A stretch of DNA of 64,000 nucleotides from Lysobacter capsici (GTDB lineage Bacteria > Pseudomonadota > Gammaproteobacteria > Xanthomonadales > Xanthomonadaceae): positions 6,014,001 to 6,078,000 of the forward strand of contig NZ_CP094357.1 in the NCBI RefSeq assembly GCF_014779555.2, given 5' to 3'. A program made the translations under genes and the position numbers. The notes below the pieces were generated by a model. That model was given only the letters and a program-made list of their open reading frames with translations. It searched no databases and had not been told where the DNA came from. Below are positions 36,608 through 44,847 of this stretch, piece after piece (position 1 is the stretch's first letter; each line of letters begins with the position of its first letter).

Positions 36608-37147
36608 TCATCGCGATCCGGCGCCGCCATGCTGGGCGAATGGCCGCGCGCTCCCGTCCATGGCGATCAACTCCACCGTGTACGGCTCCACCCGGCCGTC
36701 GGGCATTTCCATGCCCGGCGATCCGGCCGGCATGCCGGGCAGCGTCAGGCCGCGCGCCTGCGGACGCTCGGCGAGCAGGCGCTTGATGTCCTCGACCGGA
36801 ACATGGCCTTCGATCACGTAGCCGTCGATCTGAGCGGTGTGGCACGAGCCCTTGCCGAACGGAATCCCGAGCCGCTCTTTGATCGGGTGGATGTTGTCCT
36901 GATCGCGGACCTCGACCGGAAACCCCGCCTGGCGCAGGTGATCGACCCACAGGCCGCAGCAGCCGCAGGTCGGACTCTTGTGCACCAGCACGCGCGGCCA
37001 GGTGTCGGCGACCGCCGACTGCTGAGCCGATGCCGTTGCCGGGACCGGCGTCGCCGCGAGCGCGGTCTCGGGCGGGCGGGCGCAGGCGCTCAAGGCCAAC
37101 CCGGTTGCCAGCAACAGCGAGCGTCCCGCCGCATGGCTTATTCGCAT
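36608..37147 (-). CDS. DUF411 metal-binding lipoprotein
   Basis: A 179-residue protein. The N-terminus has a lipobox ('LALSAC', Cys ~22), so it is a lipoprotein. The DUF411 domain follows: 'VHKSPTCGCCGLWVDHLRQAGFPVEV', with a CxCC cluster, and 'IPFGKGSCHTAQIDGYVIEGHVPVEDIKRLL', with a Cys-His pair. DUF411 proteins accompany copper-resistance genes and probably bind Cu(I) in the periplasm. It follows the cytochrome c gene by 51 bp in the same orientation, together with CopL, suggesting a copper-responsive unit. Confidence 0.9.
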   Translation of the reverse strand: MRISHAAGRSLLLATGLALSACARPPETALAATPVPATASAQQSAVADTWPRVLVHKSPTCGCCGLWVDHLRQAGFPVEVRDQDNIHPIKERLGIPFGKGSCHTAQIDGYVIEGHVPVEDIKRLLAERPQARGLTLPGMPAGSPGMEMPDGRVEPYTVELIAMDGSARPFAQHGGAGSR

Positions 37148-37198
37148 GTCCGTTCTCCTTGGTGCTGGTTCGCAATAACCGATGGAGTGGGTGAAAGA

Positions 37199-38029
37199 TC
37201 AATGTTGATGCTCATGACTGTCTTCCGTTGTCGAGGATGGTTTGGCTGGTGTCGCCGGCTGGGCCATGTCCGCGTGGGTGTCGGCGGCCGGCCGGTTCTG
37301 CGAGGACGTCGATTGGCGCGGCGTGGCCGCCGATGCATGGGCATGCGGCTTGCCGTCGGCGTGGGTGTGCGGCGTAGCGCTGCGCGCCGGCGACGGATCG
37401 GACGCGTCGCTCATCGCGTCGTGGCCGGCGTGGTCCCGCGGCATGACGCCATCGTGGTCCATCGCTTCGGCCGCATGCGCATGCCCGCCGGTCTCGCCGC
37501 CGCCGTGCGAATGGCCGCCGCTGGCGGCGACCAAGGCCTCGTACTTCGGCCGGTCGAGTTTGGGCAGCTGTTGAAGAAATGCCGCCAGATTCCAGATGTA
37601 GTCGTCGCCCATGCTCCCGCCCCAGGCCGGCATGCCGCTGGCCTTGATGCCGTGCTTGATCACCCAGAACGCCTCACCGGCGGATACGGTTTTCCGAGTG
37701 AGGTCCGGCGGCGCCGGATACAGGCCCTTGCTCAGTTCGGTCGGCTCCATGCCCGGCGCGAGGTGGCAGCCCATGCACATCGCGGCGTAGTTGCCCGCGC
37801 CCTGACGGATACGCGCCTCGTCGCCGAGATCGGCCGGCACCCGCAAGGCGTCGGCGCGCACGGCGATGGAGCGGACGCGAGCGGTTTCCAGCAACGCGTA
37901 CACCGCGCGCGTGTGCGGTTCGTCGGCGGCGACGTTGTAGGCGCCGCTGTAGACGGCGATCGCGCCGACCAGGCTGATGAAACCCGCCGCAACGGCGACG
38001 GAAAGGATGGATCGCGCAGCGACGTTCAT
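37199..38029 (-). CDS. Membrane-anchored c-type cytochrome with His-rich tail
   Basis: A 276-residue protein. Residues 8-30 form a signal anchor. One heme-binding motif CxxCH is present as 'CMGCHLAPG', and the axial Met is likely in 'ASGMPAWGG'. This is the small cytochrome c domain seen downstream of copper-resistance genes. The C-terminal ~110 residues are low-complexity and rich in His, Asp, Gly and Ser ('SGGHSHGGGETGGHAHAAEAMDHDG' region), a likely metal-buffering tail. It lies between CopL and the DUF411 gene on the same strand. Confidence 0.88.
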   Translation of the reverse strand: MNVAARSILSVAVAAGFISLVGAIAVYSGAYNVAADEPHTRAVYALLETARVRSIAVRADALRVPADLGDEARIRQGAGNYAAMCMGCHLAPGMEPTELSKGLYPAPPDLTRKTVSAGEAFWVIKHGIKASGMPAWGGSMGDDYIWNLAAFLQQLPKLDRPKYEALVAASGGHSHGGGETGGHAHAAEAMDHDGVMPRDHAGHDAMSDASDPSPARSATPHTHADGKPHAHASAATPRQSTSSQNRPAADTHADMAQPATPAKPSSTTEDSHEHQH

Positions 38030-38302
38030 GGCGCCTCCTTGCGATCAGCTGCAGAACCAAAACCGGAATAGCTATCGGACCTGCCGCGACCTGGCGGAAC
38101 CCACCGGGACCTAGAGCGAAGGGCTTGCGCGAAGCGGTACGCCTGATGCGGCGCACAGACGCGGCCGCCCAAAGAATCGAATGACATGGGAACTCCACAT
38201 GCGTCGAGAGATGTCCGTTGAACACGGACACGACCGCCGCGACCGCCGCGCGACAGGCGGGGCGGACACGGCGACACAGGCGCGCGAGGCGCCGATGCAT
38301 GC

Positions 38303-38752
38303 TCAGGCGATGGGAGGTCGGATCAAATGCGGCAAGGCCGGCGCGGGGTACGCGAGCGCCAAGTCCCCGGCCGCGCGATCGCGCGCGGCCAGCAACGGCG
38401 CCTGAGGCACCATGGGAATCAGCGACGCGCACACCTGCGGGCAGGCGCAGCGACATGCCGAGGATTTGCAGCAGTCCGGCGCGGCGGGGTCGCAAGGTTC
38501 TGGCGCCGCGGCGGGCGCATCGGCGTGGTCCGCGTCGTGCTGACTCGCCGTCATCGCCAAGGCATGGCCGGCGCAATGCGATCCCGCGGCCTTGTCCGCC
38601 GCGCCGATCGCCCGCTCGCTCCACGGCATCGCCATGTTCACGGACATTTGCACCGACGCGTGCGCCGACCCGATCCCGTTCAAGACCAGGATCAGGCTCA
38701 GCAGAACGCGCAGCAGCACGGTCGATACGGACATCGCCGCACGATAACGCAT
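38303..38752 (-). CDS. copL: CopL-family metal-binding regulatory protein
   Basis: A 149-residue protein with a signal/anchor segment ('VLLRVLLSLILVLNGIGSAHAS') followed by a His-rich and then Cys-rich part ('CDPAAPDCCKSSACRCACPQVC') and a conserved end, 'LPHLIRPPIA'. CopL of Xanthomonas is needed for copper-dependent expression of copAB. Here the next genes on the strand are cytochrome c and DUF411, and copA/copB are not present. A paralogue is at 54113-54544, ending 'RLFRPPIA'. ATG 38752 or 38734 may be the start. Confidence 0.82.
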   Translation of the reverse strand: MRYRAAMSVSTVLLRVLLSLILVLNGIGSAHASVQMSVNMAMPWSERAIGAADKAAGSHCAGHALAMTASQHDADHADAPAAAPEPCDPAAPDCCKSSACRCACPQVCASLIPMVPQAPLLAARDRAAGDLALAYPAPALPHLIRPPIA

Positions 38753-38841
38753 CGCGAAGCGCGCGGCATGTTTACCGGCGTGGGAAGGTTGTCGCGCACG
38801 GCCTCGCGCTGTCGCGATACCGACCGCGCCTTCGCGCCGCT

Positions 38842-39528
38842 TCAACGATACGGCGGCGGCGTCTTCTGTCCGAAAAACACCGGCCAGTGAAGCACCGAGG
38901 CGACCGGTTCGCCGTCGAGCACGGCGGGCCGATAGGTCCATTGCAGCGCCGCGAACACGGCCGCGGTGTCGACATCGTCATGCCCGCTGGACTCGCCGAC
39001 CTTGAGGTTTTTCCTGCCGCCGTCGCGATCGATCTGGATCAGCAGCACGACCTTACCGCGCAGCTTGTCGTCCTTGACCGAGGCGGGCCACTTCGGCGGA
39101 TTCGCCTTCATCGAGGCGCTGTCGGGCCGGGCCTCGACATCGACTTCGACCGAGGCCCAGCAGCCCTCGTACACCGGAAAATCCACGGGTATGCGCAACC
39201 TTCCCGCCGCGGACTGGCCGCCTTCCATGGCCGGGTTGTAACGCCAATGCTTCGCCGCCTCCAGCGCCGCCTCGTCGAAATAGGCCTGGCCACCGGATCG
39301 TTCGACCGTCGCCTTGCTGAACTCGCCGTTCTTGTCGACGTCCACCAGCACGATCACCGTGCCGCCCACGCAGGCCTCGATCGCTTGCGACGGATATTTG
39401 GCTGGATTGAGCCTGCGCGAGGAAATATCGACGCTGGCACCGATATCCGATGCGTGCTCGGCGGCGACGGGCGCCGCGGCGAATATCGCGACCGCGCCGA
39501 GCACGAGCGAAGCAACGGCTTGTTTCAT
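38842..39528 (-). CDS. Periplasmic protein with two TonB C-terminal domains
   Basis: A 228-residue protein with a Sec signal peptide cleaved near 'PVAAEH'. Residues ~35-115 and ~130-222 each resemble the TonB C-terminal fold ('ACVGGTVIVLVDVDKNGEFSKATVERSGGQAYFDEAALEAAKHWRYNPA' and 'LRGKVVLLIQIDRDGGRKNLKVGESSGHDDVDTAAVFAALQWTYRPAV'). A normal TonB has an N-terminal anchor and a Pro-rich linker; both are missing, so this is a soluble tandem. ATG 39528 is favoured because an AAGGG lies eight bases upstream. It is followed by copL in the same direction, 89 bp away. Confidence 0.82.
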   Translation of the reverse strand: MKQAVASLVLGAVAIFAAAPVAAEHASDIGASVDISSRRLNPAKYPSQAIEACVGGTVIVLVDVDKNGEFSKATVERSGGQAYFDEAALEAAKHWRYNPAMEGGQSAAGRLRIPVDFPVYEGCWASVEVDVEARPDSASMKANPPKWPASVKDDKLRGKVVLLIQIDRDGGRKNLKVGESSGHDDVDTAAVFAALQWTYRPAVLDGEPVASVLHWPVFFGQKTPPPYR

Positions 39529-39534
39529 GAGCAT

Positions 39535-39898
39535 CCCTTCATCGAGCCGCGGCCCGTCTCGGGCCCGGTGTTGGTGGTGTGGACGAAGGCTAGCACGCGC
39601 GCCGCGACGCCCAGGCCGGCGTTCGATGGCGCGAACGAGGGCGACACGCCGAGCCGCCCTGGAGCGCGCCGGCACGCTGCGCGCGATCACCCACAAGGCG
39701 GCCGCGCCTACGACGATCCAGACGCGAGACCGCGAACCTCAATCCGGACTTCGTAACGGCTCCCGGCCGCGTCCCTCACGCCGCGCTTCCGCCATGGAGT
39801 CGGCGCGAGTGAGCGCGCCGCGAAGCCGAACTGCCATGAAACTGAAACACAAGCGGCGCCCAATGTCCGTCATTGCGCACTCACTCGTATTCGGTTCG
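39535..39898. other. Intergenic region upstream of the TelA-type operon
   Basis: The 364 bp between the divergent tandem TonB_C gene and the small RHH-like gene holds no supported gene unless that small gene starts at ATG 39836. I see no obvious terminator or repeat. The promoter of the operon should lie in its right half, but no good -35/-10 pair could be picked by eye. Confidence 0.4.
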
Positions 39899-40120
39899 AT
39901 GCCGAAAGCCGCCAACCGCACCGTGGTCACCACCTTCCGCACCCAGCCGGGCGTCCGCGAGGCGCTGGAGATCGCGGCGGGCATGGAGAACCGCAGCATG
40001 TCGAACCTGATGGAGCGGCTGGCGATCGAACACTGCCGCAGCAAGGGGATTGCGATCGCCGGACTGGAAGCCGACGACGACACCCGCGGCCACCGCGGCC
40101 CATCCGGTCAAACGGGCTGA
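39899..40120 (+). CDS. Small ribbon-helix-helix-like protein
   Basis: A 73-residue protein: a short basic strand ('NRTVVTTFRTQPGVREALEIAAGMENRSMSNLMERLAIEHCRSKGI' region) followed by a long helix, turn and second helix, the layout of ribbon-helix-helix DNA-binding proteins. It ends 29 bp upstream of the next gene, so it may be the first gene of the TelA operon and its regulator. Starts at 39836, 39863 or 39899 are all possible and none has a good ribosome binding site; I chose 39899, directly before the strand. Fold assignment is by eye. Confidence 0.55.
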   Translation: MPKAANRTVVTTFRTQPGVREALEIAAGMENRSMSNLMERLAIEHCRSKGIAIAGLEADDDTRGHRGPSGQTG

Positions 40121-40149
40121 TCCGCAATCGACACACAGGGGACGTGCTG

Positions 40150-41277
40150 ATGAAGAAATTCCTGGGACCCGGTCTGGCCCTCCTGCTTCTGCTGGGGGTG
40201 GCCGCCGGGATCGTGTTTTCGGCCAAGGACAAGCGCGCCGGCGACCAAGCGGCGCGGCAGGCCGCCGCCAGCGATGCCGCGGCCGCGCGCCAGATCACCG
40301 TGCGGGTGCTGACCGGCTCGGAGAAACTGGACTTCCTGCGCGACCCCGAACTGACCCGCATCCTCGCCGGCGAAGGCATCGCGCTGGACGTGCAGAAGGC
40401 CGGCTCGCGCGAGATCGCGACCCGCCCGGACCTCAAGCAATTCGACGTCGCCTACCCGGCCGGCGCCGCCGCGGCCAAGAAGATCGCCGCGGTCACCGGC
40501 TCGCGCCGCGTGTTCAACAGCTTCTACACGCCGATGGCGGTGGCCAGCTGGAAGCAGCTGCTGCCGACATTGGAAGGCAACGGCATCGTCCACCAGCAGG
40601 GCGGCACCTATTTCATCGTCGACATGCGCAAGCTGGTCGAGCTGATGGAAAAGGGCGCGCGCTGGAAGGAACTGCAGCCCAATCCCAACTACGCGGTCAG
40701 CAAGTCGGTGTTGATCACCAGCACCGACGTGCGCACCAGCAACTCGGCGGCGATGTACCTCGCGCTGGCGAGTTATCTGGCCAACGGCGACAACGTGGTC
40801 GATACCGAAACCGTCGCCGACGGTGTCGCCGATCGCCTGGTCCATCTGTTCGCCAAGCAGGGCTATCAGGAAGCCAGCTCGTCCGGTCCGTTCGAGGACT
40901 ACGTGACCATGAAGCTCGGCAAGAGCCCGCTGGTGATGATCTACGAGCAGCAGTTCCTCGAATACGCCTTCAAGCACCCCGCCGTGGACCCGAACATGGT
41001 CCTGCTGTACCCGCAGCCGACCATCCTGACCAAGCACACCATCGTCGCGATCAGCGACAAGGGCGAGCGCTTCGCGCAGGTGTTCGAACGCGATCCGCGC
41101 ATCCAGGCGATCGCGCACCGCTATGGCCTGCGCGGCACCGACAACGCCGCGCTGTTCGCTCAGGCCAAGGCGCGCAAGCTCGAGGTGCCGCAGACCCTGG
41201 TCGACGTGGTCGATCCGCCGACCTACGACCTGCTCGAACGCATGATCTCCCGCATCGAATCCACTCTCGGACACTGA
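40150..41277 (+). CDS. Membrane-anchored binding-protein-like protein of the TelA operon
   Basis: A 375-residue protein with an N-terminal membrane anchor ('KKFLGPGLALLLLLGVAAGIVFSA') and no lipobox or clear cleavage site. The rest resembles a type 2 periplasmic substrate-binding protein: 'ITVRVLTGSEKLDFLRDPELTRIL' opening, 'DVAYPAGAAAAKKIA', 'VSKSVLITSTDVRTSNSAAMYLALASYLA' and 'SPLVMIYEQQFLEYAF'. It shares its opening pattern with the binding domain of the third gene. ATG 40150 has an AGGGGA seven bases upstream; a GTG at 40144 also exists. It lies 4 bp before telA. Ligand unknown. Confidence 0.78.
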   Translation: MKKFLGPGLALLLLLGVAAGIVFSAKDKRAGDQAARQAAASDAAAARQITVRVLTGSEKLDFLRDPELTRILAGEGIALDVQKAGSREIATRPDLKQFDVAYPAGAAAAKKIAAVTGSRRVFNSFYTPMAVASWKQLLPTLEGNGIVHQQGGTYFIVDMRKLVELMEKGARWKELQPNPNYAVSKSVLITSTDVRTSNSAAMYLALASYLANGDNVVDTETVADGVADRLVHLFAKQGYQEASSSGPFEDYVTMKLGKSPLVMIYEQQFLEYAFKHPAVDPNMVLLYPQPTILTKHTIVAISDKGERFAQVFERDPRIQAIAHRYGLRGTDNAALFAQAKARKLEVPQTLVDVVDPPTYDLLERMISRIESTLGH

Positions 41278-41281
41278 TCCC

Positions 41282-42496
41282 ATGACCATGCAGACTTCGT
41301 CGCAGCCGGCCGCAGAAACCTCGGTGCTGACCCTGGACATGCCCGAACCGGCCGCGATCGTGCGCGAGCCCGATCAGGCCAGCGCGATGATCCCGTTCAA
41401 GGACGAACTGCGCACGCAGCTGTTGTCGCAGGCCGACGGCTTCATCCAGGACCTGCTGACCCTCGACCCGCATTCGGAGGATTTCCGCAGCCGCGTCGAC
41501 AGCGCGTTCCGCCTGGGCCGCAAGGAAATCGGCGACAGCACCTTGCTGACCAACAAGTTCCTCGACAAGAGTTTCGTCAAGGACGCCGACAGCCCGGCGT
41601 TCAAGGTGATGAGCGAGATGCGCATGCTGTTCGAGGACCTCAACCCCTCGAAGGAAGGCGACCTGCTCGGCGTGCACAAGCTGCTCGGCCTGATCCCGTT
41701 CGGCAACAAGCTGCGCGCCTATCTGCTGCGCTTCGATGCCGCCGGCGATTCGATCCGCAAGACCATCGACCATCTATACGGCGTGCAGGACGAACTCGCG
41801 CGCGACGATCAGGCGCTGTACGCGACCATGCAGAAACTGCTGGAGGCGCTGACCCGACTCAAGGCCGCCGATATGTTCGCCAACGAACTCGACGCCAAGC
41901 TGTCGGCCGCGATCGACGGCCTCAAGGCCACCGATCCCGCGCGCGCCAAGGCGGTCGAACAGGAAGTGCTGTTCTACGTGCGCCAGGCGAGCCAGGACAT
42001 CAAGACCCAGATCCTGGTCTGCATCAACGGCTACAAGATGCTCGAAGGCCTGCGCAAGACCGGGCGCGAGTTGCGCAACGGCTGCGACCGCATGGCCACC
42101 ATCGGCATGTCCAGCCTGTCGATCGCGGTAACCCTGGCGCGCGCGCAGGGCTACCAGATCAAGGTGATGGATGCATTGGCGTCGAGTTCGAAAGCCATCG
42201 AAGGCTTGATTGCCTCGACCTCGACTCAGTTCGGCCAGCACGTCGACCGCGTCGCCGAGTTCCAGAGCAATCCGCTGATCGGCGTGCAGGCGCTGCAGAC
42301 CGCGTTCGACACCACCTTCGCCGCGCTCGACCGCATGGACGAGTTCCGCGGCAAGGCGATCCAGACCATGGGCGTGAACATCGGCAACCTCAAGACCCTG
42401 ATCGACAAGGGCGAGGCGCGCATGAACCGCGAAGGCACCGCGATCGCGGCGATGCAGCACGCGACCGCCGCGCCGGCCGGTCCGGTCGCGCTCTGA
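41282..42496 (+). CDS. telA: TelA-family toxic-anion resistance protein
   Basis: A 404-residue soluble, largely helical protein of the TelA (toxic anion resistance; KlaA/YaaN) family. Typical parts are 'LLTNKFLDKSFVKDADSPAFKVMSEMRMLFEDLNPSKEGDLLG', 'IPFGNKLRAYLLRFDAAGDSIRKTIDHLYGVQDELARDDQALYATMQ' and the C-terminal helices 'SSSKAIEGLIASTSTQFGQHVDRVAEFQSNP'. Members confer tellurite or other anion or peptide tolerance, by a mechanism not settled. It starts 4 bp after the preceding gene and is followed 47 bp later by the VWA fusion. In Bacillus the homologue pairs with xpaC, as here with the fourth gene. Confidence 0.9.
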   Translation: MTMQTSSQPAAETSVLTLDMPEPAAIVREPDQASAMIPFKDELRTQLLSQADGFIQDLLTLDPHSEDFRSRVDSAFRLGRKEIGDSTLLTNKFLDKSFVKDADSPAFKVMSEMRMLFEDLNPSKEGDLLGVHKLLGLIPFGNKLRAYLLRFDAAGDSIRKTIDHLYGVQDELARDDQALYATMQKLLEALTRLKAADMFANELDAKLSAAIDGLKATDPARAKAVEQEVLFYVRQASQDIKTQILVCINGYKMLEGLRKTGRELRNGCDRMATIGMSSLSIAVTLARAQGYQIKVMDALASSSKAIEGLIASTSTQFGQHVDRVAEFQSNPLIGVQALQTAFDTTFAALDRMDEFRGKAIQTMGVNIGNLKTLIDKGEARMNREGTAIAAMQHATAAPAGPVAL

Positions 42497-42543
42497 CCTT
42501 GCCCGCGACTTCGCCAGGACCCGCCTTGTCAGGAACGACCGCC

Positions 42544-44151
42544 ATGATCCGACTGTTACGCCTGTTCGCCGCCGCCGTGGCCGTGTCCGTGCTGGCCGCG
42601 TGCGGCGGCGGCGCGCAGGACGGCGCCTCGCCCGACAGCGACGCCCGTCCGCGACGCGCGTTCACCGTGCTCGCCGGTTCCGAGATCAAGGACGTCGATA
42701 CGCAGCTCGGCGACGACATCCGCAAGGCGACCGGCATCGATGTGCGCTTCACCTATTCGGGCACGCTCGACGCGATCGACCGGCTCAACGCGGGCGAAGC
42801 CTTCGATGCGGTGTGGGTCAGCCACGGCAAGTACCTGGCGATGAATCCCACGCTCAAGTCGCGGATCAAGGCGCAGGAAAAAATCATGCTGTCGCCGGTG
42901 ATACTCGGCGTAAAGGCATCGAAGGCCGCGGCGCTGGGCTGGGACAAGACCGACCCGACCTGGAAGGACATCGCCGACGCCGCCGGCAGCGGCCGCTTCA
43001 CCTTCGGCATGACCAATCCGACCGCGAGCAACACCGGCTTCACCGCGGTGATCGGCATCGCCGCGGCGCTGGCGTCCAATCCCGATGCGCTGACCGAAGC
43101 CGACGTCGCCAACCCGGCGCTCAAGGCGTTCTATCAGGGCCAGCGCATGACCGCCGGTTCCTCGGGTTGGCTCGCCGATGCCTACGCAAGCGACCCGTCC
43201 AAGGCCGACGGCCTCATCAACTACGAGTCGGTGATCCTCTCGCTCAATCACGGCGGCAAGCTGCCCGAGCCGCTGGTGCCGGTGTATCCCAAGGAAGGCA
43301 TCATCACCGCCGACTATCCGCTGATGCTGCTCGACACCGGCAAGCGCGGCGACTACGACACGCTGGTGGCGTATCTGCGCTCGCCCGCGTTCCAGACCCG
43401 GTTGTCGGCCGCGACCTTGCGCCGCCCGGTCAGTCCGGACGCGACCGCGGCGTCGGAGATTCCCAACCGTACCCTGATCGAATTGCCGTTCCCCGGCCAG
43501 CCACAGGTCATCGATCGCCTGCTCGACAGTTTCCTCGCCGACATGCGCATCCCGTCGACCTCGCGCTACGTGCTCGACCTGTCGGGCTCGATGGAACGCG
43601 ACGATCGCCTGGGCCAGCTCAAGACGGCGATGAACACCCTGGCCGGCGGCGACAGCGCATCGCTGAGCTCGCGTTATGCGCGCTTCCAGAACCGCGAACG
43701 CATCGGCCTGCTGCCGTTCTCCAGCCGGCCGATGCCGACCCGCACCTTCGACATGGGCAGCGGCGCCGACAGCAACCGCGCCACCCTCGCGGCGATCCAG
43801 GCCGCGGTGGAGCCGATGGCCGCCGACGGCGGCACCGCGATCTACGACAGCGTGCGCCAGGCCTTGCTCGAACTGGCCGGCGAGAAACGCAGCCGTCCGG
43901 ACAAGCGCTATTACACCGTGGTGCTGATGACCGACGGCGAAAACAACGAAGGCATCGACCTGCAGGAATTTCTGCGCTGGCGCGAGAGCCAGGACGATGC
44001 GGTCCGATCGATCCGGGTATTCCCGATCATCTTCGGCGAGGCCGACGCCTCGGAAATGAAGTCGCTGGCCGATGCCACCGGCGGCAAGGCCTTCGATGCG
44101 AAGTCGCAATCGCTTGCGCTCGTGTTCAAGGACATCCGCGGCTACCAGTGA
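42544..44151 (+). CDS. Lipoprotein fusing a substrate-binding domain to a VWA domain
   Basis: A 535-residue lipoprotein (lipobox 'VLAAC', Cys20). Residues ~35-325 form a type 2 periplasmic-binding-protein-like domain ('FTVLAGSEIKDVDTQLGDDIRKATGIDVRFTYSGTLDAIDRLNAGE', 'SGRFTFGMTNPTASNTGF'). From residue ~340 to the end is a von Willebrand factor A domain with an intact MIDAS: D345-x-S347-x-S349 in 'VLDLSGSMERD', and D464 in 'MTDGENNEGID'. The fusion suggests metal-dependent protein contacts in the periplasm. It follows telA by 47 bp and precedes the XpaC-like gene by 12 bp. Confidence 0.85.
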   Translation: MIRLLRLFAAAVAVSVLAACGGGAQDGASPDSDARPRRAFTVLAGSEIKDVDTQLGDDIRKATGIDVRFTYSGTLDAIDRLNAGEAFDAVWVSHGKYLAMNPTLKSRIKAQEKIMLSPVILGVKASKAAALGWDKTDPTWKDIADAAGSGRFTFGMTNPTASNTGFTAVIGIAAALASNPDALTEADVANPALKAFYQGQRMTAGSSGWLADAYASDPSKADGLINYESVILSLNHGGKLPEPLVPVYPKEGIITADYPLMLLDTGKRGDYDTLVAYLRSPAFQTRLSAATLRRPVSPDATAASEIPNRTLIELPFPGQPQVIDRLLDSFLADMRIPSTSRYVLDLSGSMERDDRLGQLKTAMNTLAGGDSASLSSRYARFQNRERIGLLPFSSRPMPTRTFDMGSGADSNRATLAAIQAAVEPMAADGGTAIYDSVRQALLELAGEKRSRPDKRYYTVVLMTDGENNEGIDLQEFLRWRESQDDAVRSIRVFPIIFGEADASEMKSLADATGGKAFDAKSQSLALVFKDIRGYQ

Positions 44152-44163
44152 CCTCATCGATCG

Positions 44164-44847
44164 ATGGATAAGCCAGTCGCCCTTCCGACCGCGAACAAAC
44201 TGCAGCTGTATCTGTACAGCACGCGCAATATCGTCGGCTGCTGCCTGGGCGCGATCGGGCTGGTGTTGCTGTTCACCGGGGTGATCGGCGCGGGCTGGCC
44301 GTTGATCGTGGCTGGGCTGTACGCGGCCGGCGCGATCGGCTGGCCGCGCAGCACCCTGGCCGATGCGGTGGCGAACCACGAAATCTCCGCCGATCAATTG
44401 GTGCAGCATCTGGACCGGCTGGTGAGCCAGGTCGCCAAGGCTTTGCCGGCCGCAGCGCTGGAATCGTTGCGCAGCATCCAGAACACCTTGCGCGACCTGT
44501 TGCCGCGTCTGCGCACGCTCAAGGATTCCAGCGCGCTGTCGGCGCAATCGGCCTTCACCATCCAGGAAACCCTTCGCCGCTATCTGCCGGACATGCTGGC
44601 CAGCTATCTGCGGTTGCCGCCGGCGTTCGCGAAGATGCAGGCGCTCGAGGACGGTCGCACCGCCGCGCAGACCTTGACCGATCAGCTGCAATTGCTGGAT
44701 GGGTCGTTGAAGAAGATCGCGCAGGAAGCCTTCGCCGGCGATGCCGAGGCGCTGATCGACAGCGGCCGGTTCCTGCAGCAGAAGTTCGATCCCAAGCCGG
44801 CGTACGAGCTCGCCGTCGATACCAAGGCCGGGGATTCCAAGCCGTAA
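44164..44847 (+). CDS. XpaC-like membrane protein
   Basis: A 227-residue protein with a pair of membrane helices at residues ~22-60 ('NIVGCCLGAIGLVLLFTGVIGAGWPLIVAGLYAAGAIGW') and a long cytosolic coiled-coil/helical domain ('LVQHLDRLVSQVAKALPAAALESLRSIQNTLRDLLPRL...QETLRRYLPDMLASYL'). It matches the XpaC family ('5-bromo-4-chloroindolyl phosphate hydrolysis'), which in Bacillus is paired with the TelA homologue YaaN. Its name does not reflect a known enzyme activity. It is the last gene of the operon. Confidence 0.78.
   Translation: MDKPVALPTANKLQLYLYSTRNIVGCCLGAIGLVLLFTGVIGAGWPLIVAGLYAAGAIGWPRSTLADAVANHEISADQLVQHLDRLVSQVAKALPAAALESLRSIQNTLRDLLPRLRTLKDSSALSAQSAFTIQETLRRYLPDMLASYLRLPPAFAKMQALEDGRTAAQTLTDQLQLLDGSLKKIAQEAFAGDAEALIDSGRFLQQKFDPKPAYELAVDTKAGDSKP

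What the first reader, a model, noticed from the sequence alone, without database searches (positions are those of the whole stretch)
39899..44847. Five-gene TelA / VWA / binding-protein / XpaC operon: candidate envelope stress system
A small RHH-like protein, a membrane-anchored binding-protein-like protein, TelA, a lipoprotein fusing a substrate-binding domain to a VWA domain with intact MIDAS, and an XpaC-like membrane protein follow each other with gaps of 29, 4, 47 and 12 bp. TelA with XpaC is a known pair in Firmicutes, and VWA proteins occur with tellurite-type stress genes. A lipoprotein that joins a ligand sensor to a metal-dependent adhesion domain, accompanied by a second, anchored binding-like protein, is not something I know to be characterised. 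A model is a periplasmic sensing pair acting on a cytosolic TelA/XpaC complex. The function is inference.
Basis: partly seen in the sequence, partly recalled or inferred. Interest (0 to 1): 0.7.

Follow-up and report, generated by a model that had tools for sequence, protein, structure and literature searches.

The report
Conserved TelA envelope-sensor gene cassette
Four neighbouring genes, kept together as a unit in very different bacteria, appear to encode a sensor spanning the cell envelope that links two binding proteins outside the inner membrane to the stress protein TelA inside the cell; what it senses is not known.

Summary
The conserved unit is four genes; the RHH-like gene was found only in some Lysobacteraceae loci. 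Of 74 named loci carrying the anchored protein g2, 68 hold enough DNA: 62 have g2-TelA-g4-g5 in order, 4 lack TelA, 2 lack g4 and g5. They come from several phyla. g2 and the first half of g4 are paralogous binding-protein folds; g4 adds a VWA domain with intact MIDAS and a nearly invariant C-terminal R-[GAS]-Y-[QN] tail. g5 matches no Pfam family, but its profile resembles XpaC, and five genomes with a rearranged cassette carry genuine XpaC in its place. TelA+XpaC(-like) pairs and TelA-less g2-g4-g5 triads both occur, so the XpaC-like membrane protein is the common element. Best reading: a trans-envelope sensing module in which the XpaC-like protein joins a periplasmic pair to TelA. Ligand, complex and phenotype are inference. 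Nine paper searches found no description of the cassette.

The parts
39899..40120 (+). g1, 73-aa RHH-like protein; lineage-specific, probably a regulator, not part of the conserved cassette
   Evidence: RHH_5 E 0.0013, below cut-off; found in 4 of 74 named loci and, in a tblastn of L012-L029, in L012, L013, L020, L021, L024, L028
40150..41277 (+). g2, 375-aa membrane-anchored type II binding-protein fold, paralogue of the g4 N-terminal half
41282..42496 (+). TelA (g3), 404 aa, no predicted membrane segment; only TelA of this genome
   Evidence: PF05816 2.6e-46; single copy; no hydrophobic segment in 67 of 68 homologues under 450 aa
42544..44151 (+). g4, 535-aa lipoprotein: SBP half about residues 37-337 fused to VWA half about 338-535, intact MIDAS, C-terminal IRGYQ
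44164..44847 (+). g5, 227-aa XpaC-like protein: hydrophobic N-terminal hairpin (windows from residues 19 and 40) and a C-terminal part inferred to be cytosolic
   Evidence: no Pfam hit above cut-off; profile match to PF10112 sequences, score 41.3 against at most 19.8 in 100 column shuffles; XpaC found in its place in five genomes

Best explanation
A self-contained trans-envelope sensing module. SHOWN by sequence and models: a conserved cassette encoding (1) a binding-protein fold with an N-terminal hydrophobic anchor, (2) a lipoprotein with a paralogous binding-protein fold fused to a MIDAS-bearing VWA domain, (3) an XpaC-like membrane protein and (4) TelA; no transporter gene at a fixed place beside it; sub-sets occur as TelA+XpaC(-like) pairs and as g2-g4-g5 triads. 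INFERRED: both periplasmic domains bind the same kind of small, probably anionic, ligand or envelope-damage product; ligand state and Mg2+ at the MIDAS control docking of the lipoprotein, perhaps through its C-terminal RGYQ tail, onto g2 and/or the XpaC-like protein; the XpaC-like protein passes the signal through the inner membrane and recruits or assembles TelA beneath it, which stabilises the membrane or changes its permeability under stress.
For: Order kept in 62 of 68 loci from several phyla. All-or-none in 20 Lysobacter-genus genomes: the same 9 have g2, g4 and TelA, 11 have none. In 299 sampled Pseudomonadota genomes full-length g4 occurs in 7, with TelA adjacent in 7 of 7. XpaC replaces g5 in 5 of those 7, order TelA-g4-XpaC-g2. 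Paralogy of the two binding domains with matching GSE, SN[ST] and tyrosine motifs. MIDAS and C-terminal tail conserved. TelA+XpaC or TelA+g5-like pairs without g4 and g2-g4-g5 without TelA make the XpaC-like protein the shared element. Bacillus xpaC-yaaN belong to the sigma-W envelope-stress regulon (passages of PMC3498285); a Listeria lmo1967 (TelA) mutant is more sensitive to nisin and tellurite (passage of PMC12791056 citing others).
Against: No physical interaction, ligand or phenotype was tested. The g5-XpaC likeness leans on the hydrophobic hairpin: quarter-permuted controls reach 32.2 against 41.3, and the cytosolic parts alone score only 19.4-20.9 (E about 0.01) against 11.7-12.6 reversed. 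The variants without TelA show that TelA is not indispensable. One g4-like gene on a Miltoncostaea plasmid (27% identity) has no g2, TelA or g5 match within 6 kb. Two MAG loci keep g2 but no g4 or g5 (L077, L082). Close SBP neighbours in the PDB are importer receptors for varied ligands, so the ligand class is open.
Confidence: 0.5

Rival explanations
1. Oxyanion resistance device: the two binding proteins capture tellurite or a similar toxic oxyanion in the periplasm, and TelA with the XpaC-like protein limits its entry or the damage it does.
For: TelA family is named for toxic anion resistance; sulfate-binding proteins are among the nearest folds of both binding domains; reduced levels of an operon with TelA go with tellurite sensitivity in Lactococcus cremoris (passages of PMC13109727).
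Against: Nearest folds also bind thiamin, ferric ion, polyamines and sugar phosphates; Listeria TelA affects nisin more than tellurite (4-fold against 2-fold, passage); sequestration needs no VWA domain or conserved C terminus.
Confidence: 0.17
2. Exclusion of phage or xenobiotics: the module changes the membrane to block entry, TelA forming a sub-membrane structure.
For: A comparative study proposes that TelA and a TerF VWA protein form sub-membrane structures that prevent phage or xenobiotic entry (passage of PMC7824862); patchy, all-or-none distribution; one cassette lies 2.4 kb from Wadjet genes on a Variovorax plasmid.
Against: Only weak PADLOC matches (TerY 0.0071, ZorA 0.0079); g4 not found in the phage collection; no defence gene stood out as a flank shared between genera, though the flanks were not scanned with PADLOC.
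Confidence: 0.12
3. Orphan importer receptors: g2 and g4 hand a nutrient to an ABC transporter encoded elsewhere, and the link with TelA is regulatory.
For: Both are type II SBP folds like importer receptors.
Against: No permease or ATPase at a fixed place beside the cassette; the widest flank cluster, ABC-ATPase-type ORFs in 18 of 74 loci, lies at scattered positions; VWA fusion, g2 anchor and the tie to TelA do not fit a plain receptor.
Confidence: 0.1

Closest known systems
XpaC-YaaN (XpaC-TelA) pair of Bacillus subtilis and lmo1966-lmo1967 of Listeria
   Same: TelA family protein next to an XpaC or XpaC-like membrane protein; sub-sets of this kind occur in other Pseudomonadota
   Different: Here two periplasmic binding-protein genes, one fused to VWA, belong to the unit; g5 is below any Pfam threshold for XpaC; TelA is divergent (159 bits against over 300 in many others)
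Ter stress systems (TerD, TerC, TerY/TerF, TelA)
   Same: TelA together with a VWA protein
   Different: No TerD in this genome; two TerC genes lie far from the cassette; the VWA is periplasmic by its lipobox and fused to an SBP half
ABC-importer binding proteins, type II (sulfate, thiamin, ferric)
   Same: Fold of g2 and of g4 residues about 37-337
   Different: 8-17% identity in the listed SBP rows; no linked permease at a fixed place; one anchored, one fused to VWA
VWA proteins named 'Ca-activated chloride channel homolog'
   Same: VWA fold with MIDAS; database relatives of g4 bear this name
   Different: Name comes from the VWA half alone; nothing here suggests a channel

Membership tests
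TelA family (PF05816) | Pfam score above the curated cut-off | tested here: met
   158.7 bits against 30
TelA family (PF05816) | Role in tolerance of toxic anions or cell-wall agents | not testable with these tools
   Needs mutants
XpaC / Halogen_Hydrol (PF10112), for g5 | Pfam score above the curated cut-off | tested here: not met
   No PF10112 match at E<=1 for the window protein; not among the 25 of 39 families listed for 34 members at E<=10; own genome has no PF10112 match at E<=0.001
XpaC / Halogen_Hydrol (PF10112), for g5 | Collinear profile similarity over hairpin and cytosolic part | tested here: inconclusive
   Score 41.3 over 145 columns against at most 19.8 in 100 column shuffles, but up to 32.2 with quarters permuted; so 'works like', not filed as member
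XpaC / Halogen_Hydrol (PF10112), for g5 | Gene neighbour of TelA | tested here: met
   g5 shares the cassette with TelA; XpaC stands in its place in five genomes
Type II solute-binding protein fold, for g2 and g4 | Fold | tested here: met
ABC-importer receptor | Linked permease and ATPase | tested here: not met
   No such gene at a fixed place in flanks of up to 8 kb of 74 loci; unlinked partners cannot be excluded
VWA domain with MIDAS, for g4 | DxSxS, T and D residues | tested here: met
   D345, S349, T431, D464 in 44 of 44, S347 in 42 with T in 2
Ter stress system | TerD together with TelA | tested here: not met
   No TerD in the genome; TerC copies unlinked

The most novel reading that the evidence does not exclude
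An undescribed, horizontally moving trans-envelope sensor in which an XpaC-type membrane hub couples two paralogous periplasmic binding domains, one fused to a MIDAS VWA domain that docks through a conserved C-terminal R-x-Y-[QN] tail, to assembly of TelA beneath the membrane; this would say what XpaC is for and what TelA responds to.
Probability: 0.35. Interest if true: 0.8.

Novelty: new variant of a known kind. Interest (0 to 1): 0.6.

Why it matters
How TelA protects is stated to be unknown (passage in PMC12791056). The cassette ties TelA and an XpaC-like protein to periplasmic binding domains whose ligand can be measured, which makes the question of what this pair responds to directly testable. 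It also gives a context to two protein families that the annotated records seen here call 'hypothetical protein', and a sharp handle for mutation, the conserved C-terminal tail of g4.

Tried and rejected
RHH as part of the unit: rejected, 4 of 74 named loci plus L012 and L013. Chance adjacency: rejected. Link to the copper-type genes upstream (DUF411, cytochrome c): seven neighbour proteins were searched in the fetched loci and hit only loci of the two closest relatives, G001 and G003; one of the seven queries was mis-framed in the script. Fixed ABC transporter: not found. Defence system: weak PADLOC matches only, no phage hits. Ter operon: no TerD. Rfam: no match. Promoters and terminators: 1 and 2 sites, not above shuffles. 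PDB by sequence: none for g2, a weak VWA match for g4, a chance-level one for TelA.

Weak points of method. The first g2-g4 profile comparison, with 16 g4 rows, gave probability 4% (E 0.009); with 44 rows 92% (E 5.9e-7). The first XpaC extraction took wrong frames for several loci and was redone. The flank clustering holds many spurious overlapping frames. The TelA tree is quick, has long branches, and L145 was labelled 'other' though it is a cassette-A locus; I use it only for the Lysobacter-Acidobacteria grouping. In the g4 genome search only the best 4 candidates per genome were scored. Seven proteins beside TelA in other genomes gave no SBP-VWA partner; one is an NMT1-type binding protein, not followed.
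Full report
WHAT IS THERE. The host is a Lysobacter close to L. capsici (best g4 database match 99%); the window is 6014001-6078000 of a single-contig genome of 6,239,188 bases. Against the close relatives L012 and L013, g2-g5 show dN/dS 0.03-0.19, so they are constrained genes; g1 gives 0.25 and 0.78. Pfam names TelA and the two halves of g4; g1 is below the cut-off.

HOW FAR THE CASSETTE REACHES. A scan of named genome contigs with a g2 profile returned 74 loci. Six end inside the cassette (L030, L037, L042, L044, L059, L087). Of the other 68, 62 carry g2-TelA-g4-g5 in that order on one strand, four lack TelA (L021, L024, L028, L038), and two MAG loci lack g4 and g5 (L077, L082). Among the 62, L090 has TelA in two frames, L035 starts inside g2, and L036 and L080 have inserts of 669 and 1020 bp. 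Record titles name beta- and gammaproteobacteria, Acidobacteria, Deinococcales, Eremiobacterota, Spartobacteria, an actinomycete and one MAG called Bacteroidetes. Flanking genes recur mainly within a genus such as Variovorax. In the genus Lysobacter the cassette is all-or-none: the same 9 of 20 genomes have g2, g4 and TelA, 11 have none. All four window proteins are closer to four Acidobacteria loci (g2 59-64, TelA 66-69, g4 59-62, g5 53-56% identity) than to 13 Betaproteobacteria loci (43-51, 30-47, 42-51, 36-45%), and the TelA tree puts Lysobacter with Acidobacteria (SH-aLRT 100, quick method). This suggests transfer as a unit. Seven records of the plasmid collection hold g4 relatives; of five examined, three have all four genes, one has g2-g4-g5 without TelA, one has g4 alone. 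No phage record matched.

THE TAIL OF g4. MIDAS residues are fixed. The chain ends in IRGYQ in 120 of 120 listed database homologues (the best 120 of 4215); in the named loci RGYQ ends 65 of 68, the others being RSYQ (L045) and two incomplete frames (L030, L047); RGYN ends 5 of 5 rearranged cassettes; RAYQ ends the Deinococcus and Variovorax plasmid proteins and RGYQ the Sphaerotilus one. The remote Miltoncostaea protein ends otherwise; the Nonomuraea frame was mis-set in my script and not read. A conserved free C terminus suggests a docking peptide; that is inference.

THE g5-XpaC QUESTION. g5 hits no Pfam family above cut-off, and none of the 120 listed database relatives carries a precomputed Pfam domain. 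The likeness is there but leans on the hydrophobic hairpin. Hydropathy finds two hydrophobic segments in 21 of 66 g5 homologues, one in 45. Independent support is gene content: in five genomes of the phylum but outside the window's class (G129, G109, G113, G309, G090; loci L159, L179-L182) the cassette reads TelA-g4-XpaC-g2, XpaC standing directly after g4 as g5 does (Pfam check of L159: XpaC 1.7e-21, SBP_bac_11 1e-10 and VWA 1.4e-8, TelA 9.9e-96).

MODULES. In 299 sampled Pseudomonadota genomes TelA passes its cut-off in 45, XpaC in 22, and full-length g4 occurs in 7 (407-811 bits; the other listed matches cover at most about 210 of 525 positions). TelA is adjacent in 7 of 7 (positions). In family f58 TelA lies beside XpaC in 12 of 13 genomes (my reading of the positions); in f48 TelA lies beside a g5-like gene in 8 of 8 loci examined, out of 11 TelA-positive genomes. 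Neither family shows full-length g4. The converse, g2-g4-g5 without TelA, occurs in 4 of 68 loci, whose genomes show no TelA at all (0 of 4, completeness not told), and on a Deinococcus taeanensis plasmid region. The XpaC-like protein is thus the element shared by these versions, which is why I place it as the hub.

MECHANISM. The anatomy is two periplasmic binding domains, one anchored and one on a lipoprotein with a metal-dependent docking domain, a membrane protein, and a protein without membrane segments. No transporter is fixed beside them. I infer a sensor that reports a ligand or damage in the periplasm to TelA through the XpaC-like protein. Nearest published facts, seen as passages only: sigma-W control of xpaC-yaaN in B. 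subtilis (PMC3498285); nisin and tellurite sensitivity of a Listeria lmo1967 mutant, mechanism unknown (PMC12791056, citing Collins et al. 2010, which is not held); tellurite sensitivity when ORF53-TelA-TelB-TelC levels fall in L. cremoris (PMC13109727); the proposal that TelA forms sub-membrane structures (PMC7824862). A reference title relates the major vault protein to TelA (PMC7916137).

PRINT SEARCH. Paper searches, seen as listings, showed no paper that describes this cassette, with five annotation phrases, found none holding two of them. The library lacks most subscription papers. 'Ter-dependent stress response systems' (authors and year recalled: Anantharaman and colleagues, 2012; not read; the title phrase was used as a search term) may mention TelA-VWA neighbourhoods, so novelty carries that reserve. 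Databases already name g4 relatives 'substrate-binding and VWA domain-containing protein'.

VERDICT. Observation confirmed; interpretation partly supported; a new variant of the TelA/XpaC kind with a periplasmic half that I found no description of.

Noticed in passing
window 39700-40150; L014-L019, L022, L023 just before g2: Two alternative front ends in Lysobacter: an RHH gene with its own leader, or no RHH and a conserved short element containing repeated CATA steps right before g2 (8 loci from 6 genomes).
   Followed up: partly
L050, L057, L058, L062, L067, L073, 60-300 bp after g5: An ORF cluster in six Burkholderiales-type loci; the L058 copy matches the PIN domain at the Pfam cut-off (8.7e-5), perhaps a toxin-antitoxin gene beside the cassette.
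   Followed up: partly
L186 8126-13458 (Variovorax sp. SRS16 plasmid): Wadjet-type genes (JetA and others) begin about 2.4 kb after the cassette.
   Followed up: no
L132, L134, L136, L138, L139, L141, L142, L143: Family f48 genomes carry TelA with a g5-like gene and no full-length g4: a minimal two-gene version.
   Followed up: partly
L148 4944-8996: Two TelA relatives in a row and a ParA-like ATPase on the same strand.
   Followed up: no
L144 and L147, upstream of TelA: An unannotated protein of about 315 aa precedes a separate clade of TelA in two genomes of the window's class.
   Followed up: no
window 36608-39696, minus strand: DUF411 protein, cbb3-type cytochrome c and a TonB C-terminal-domain protein lie on the other strand before the cassette; neighbours like these recur only in the closest relatives.
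   Followed up: partly
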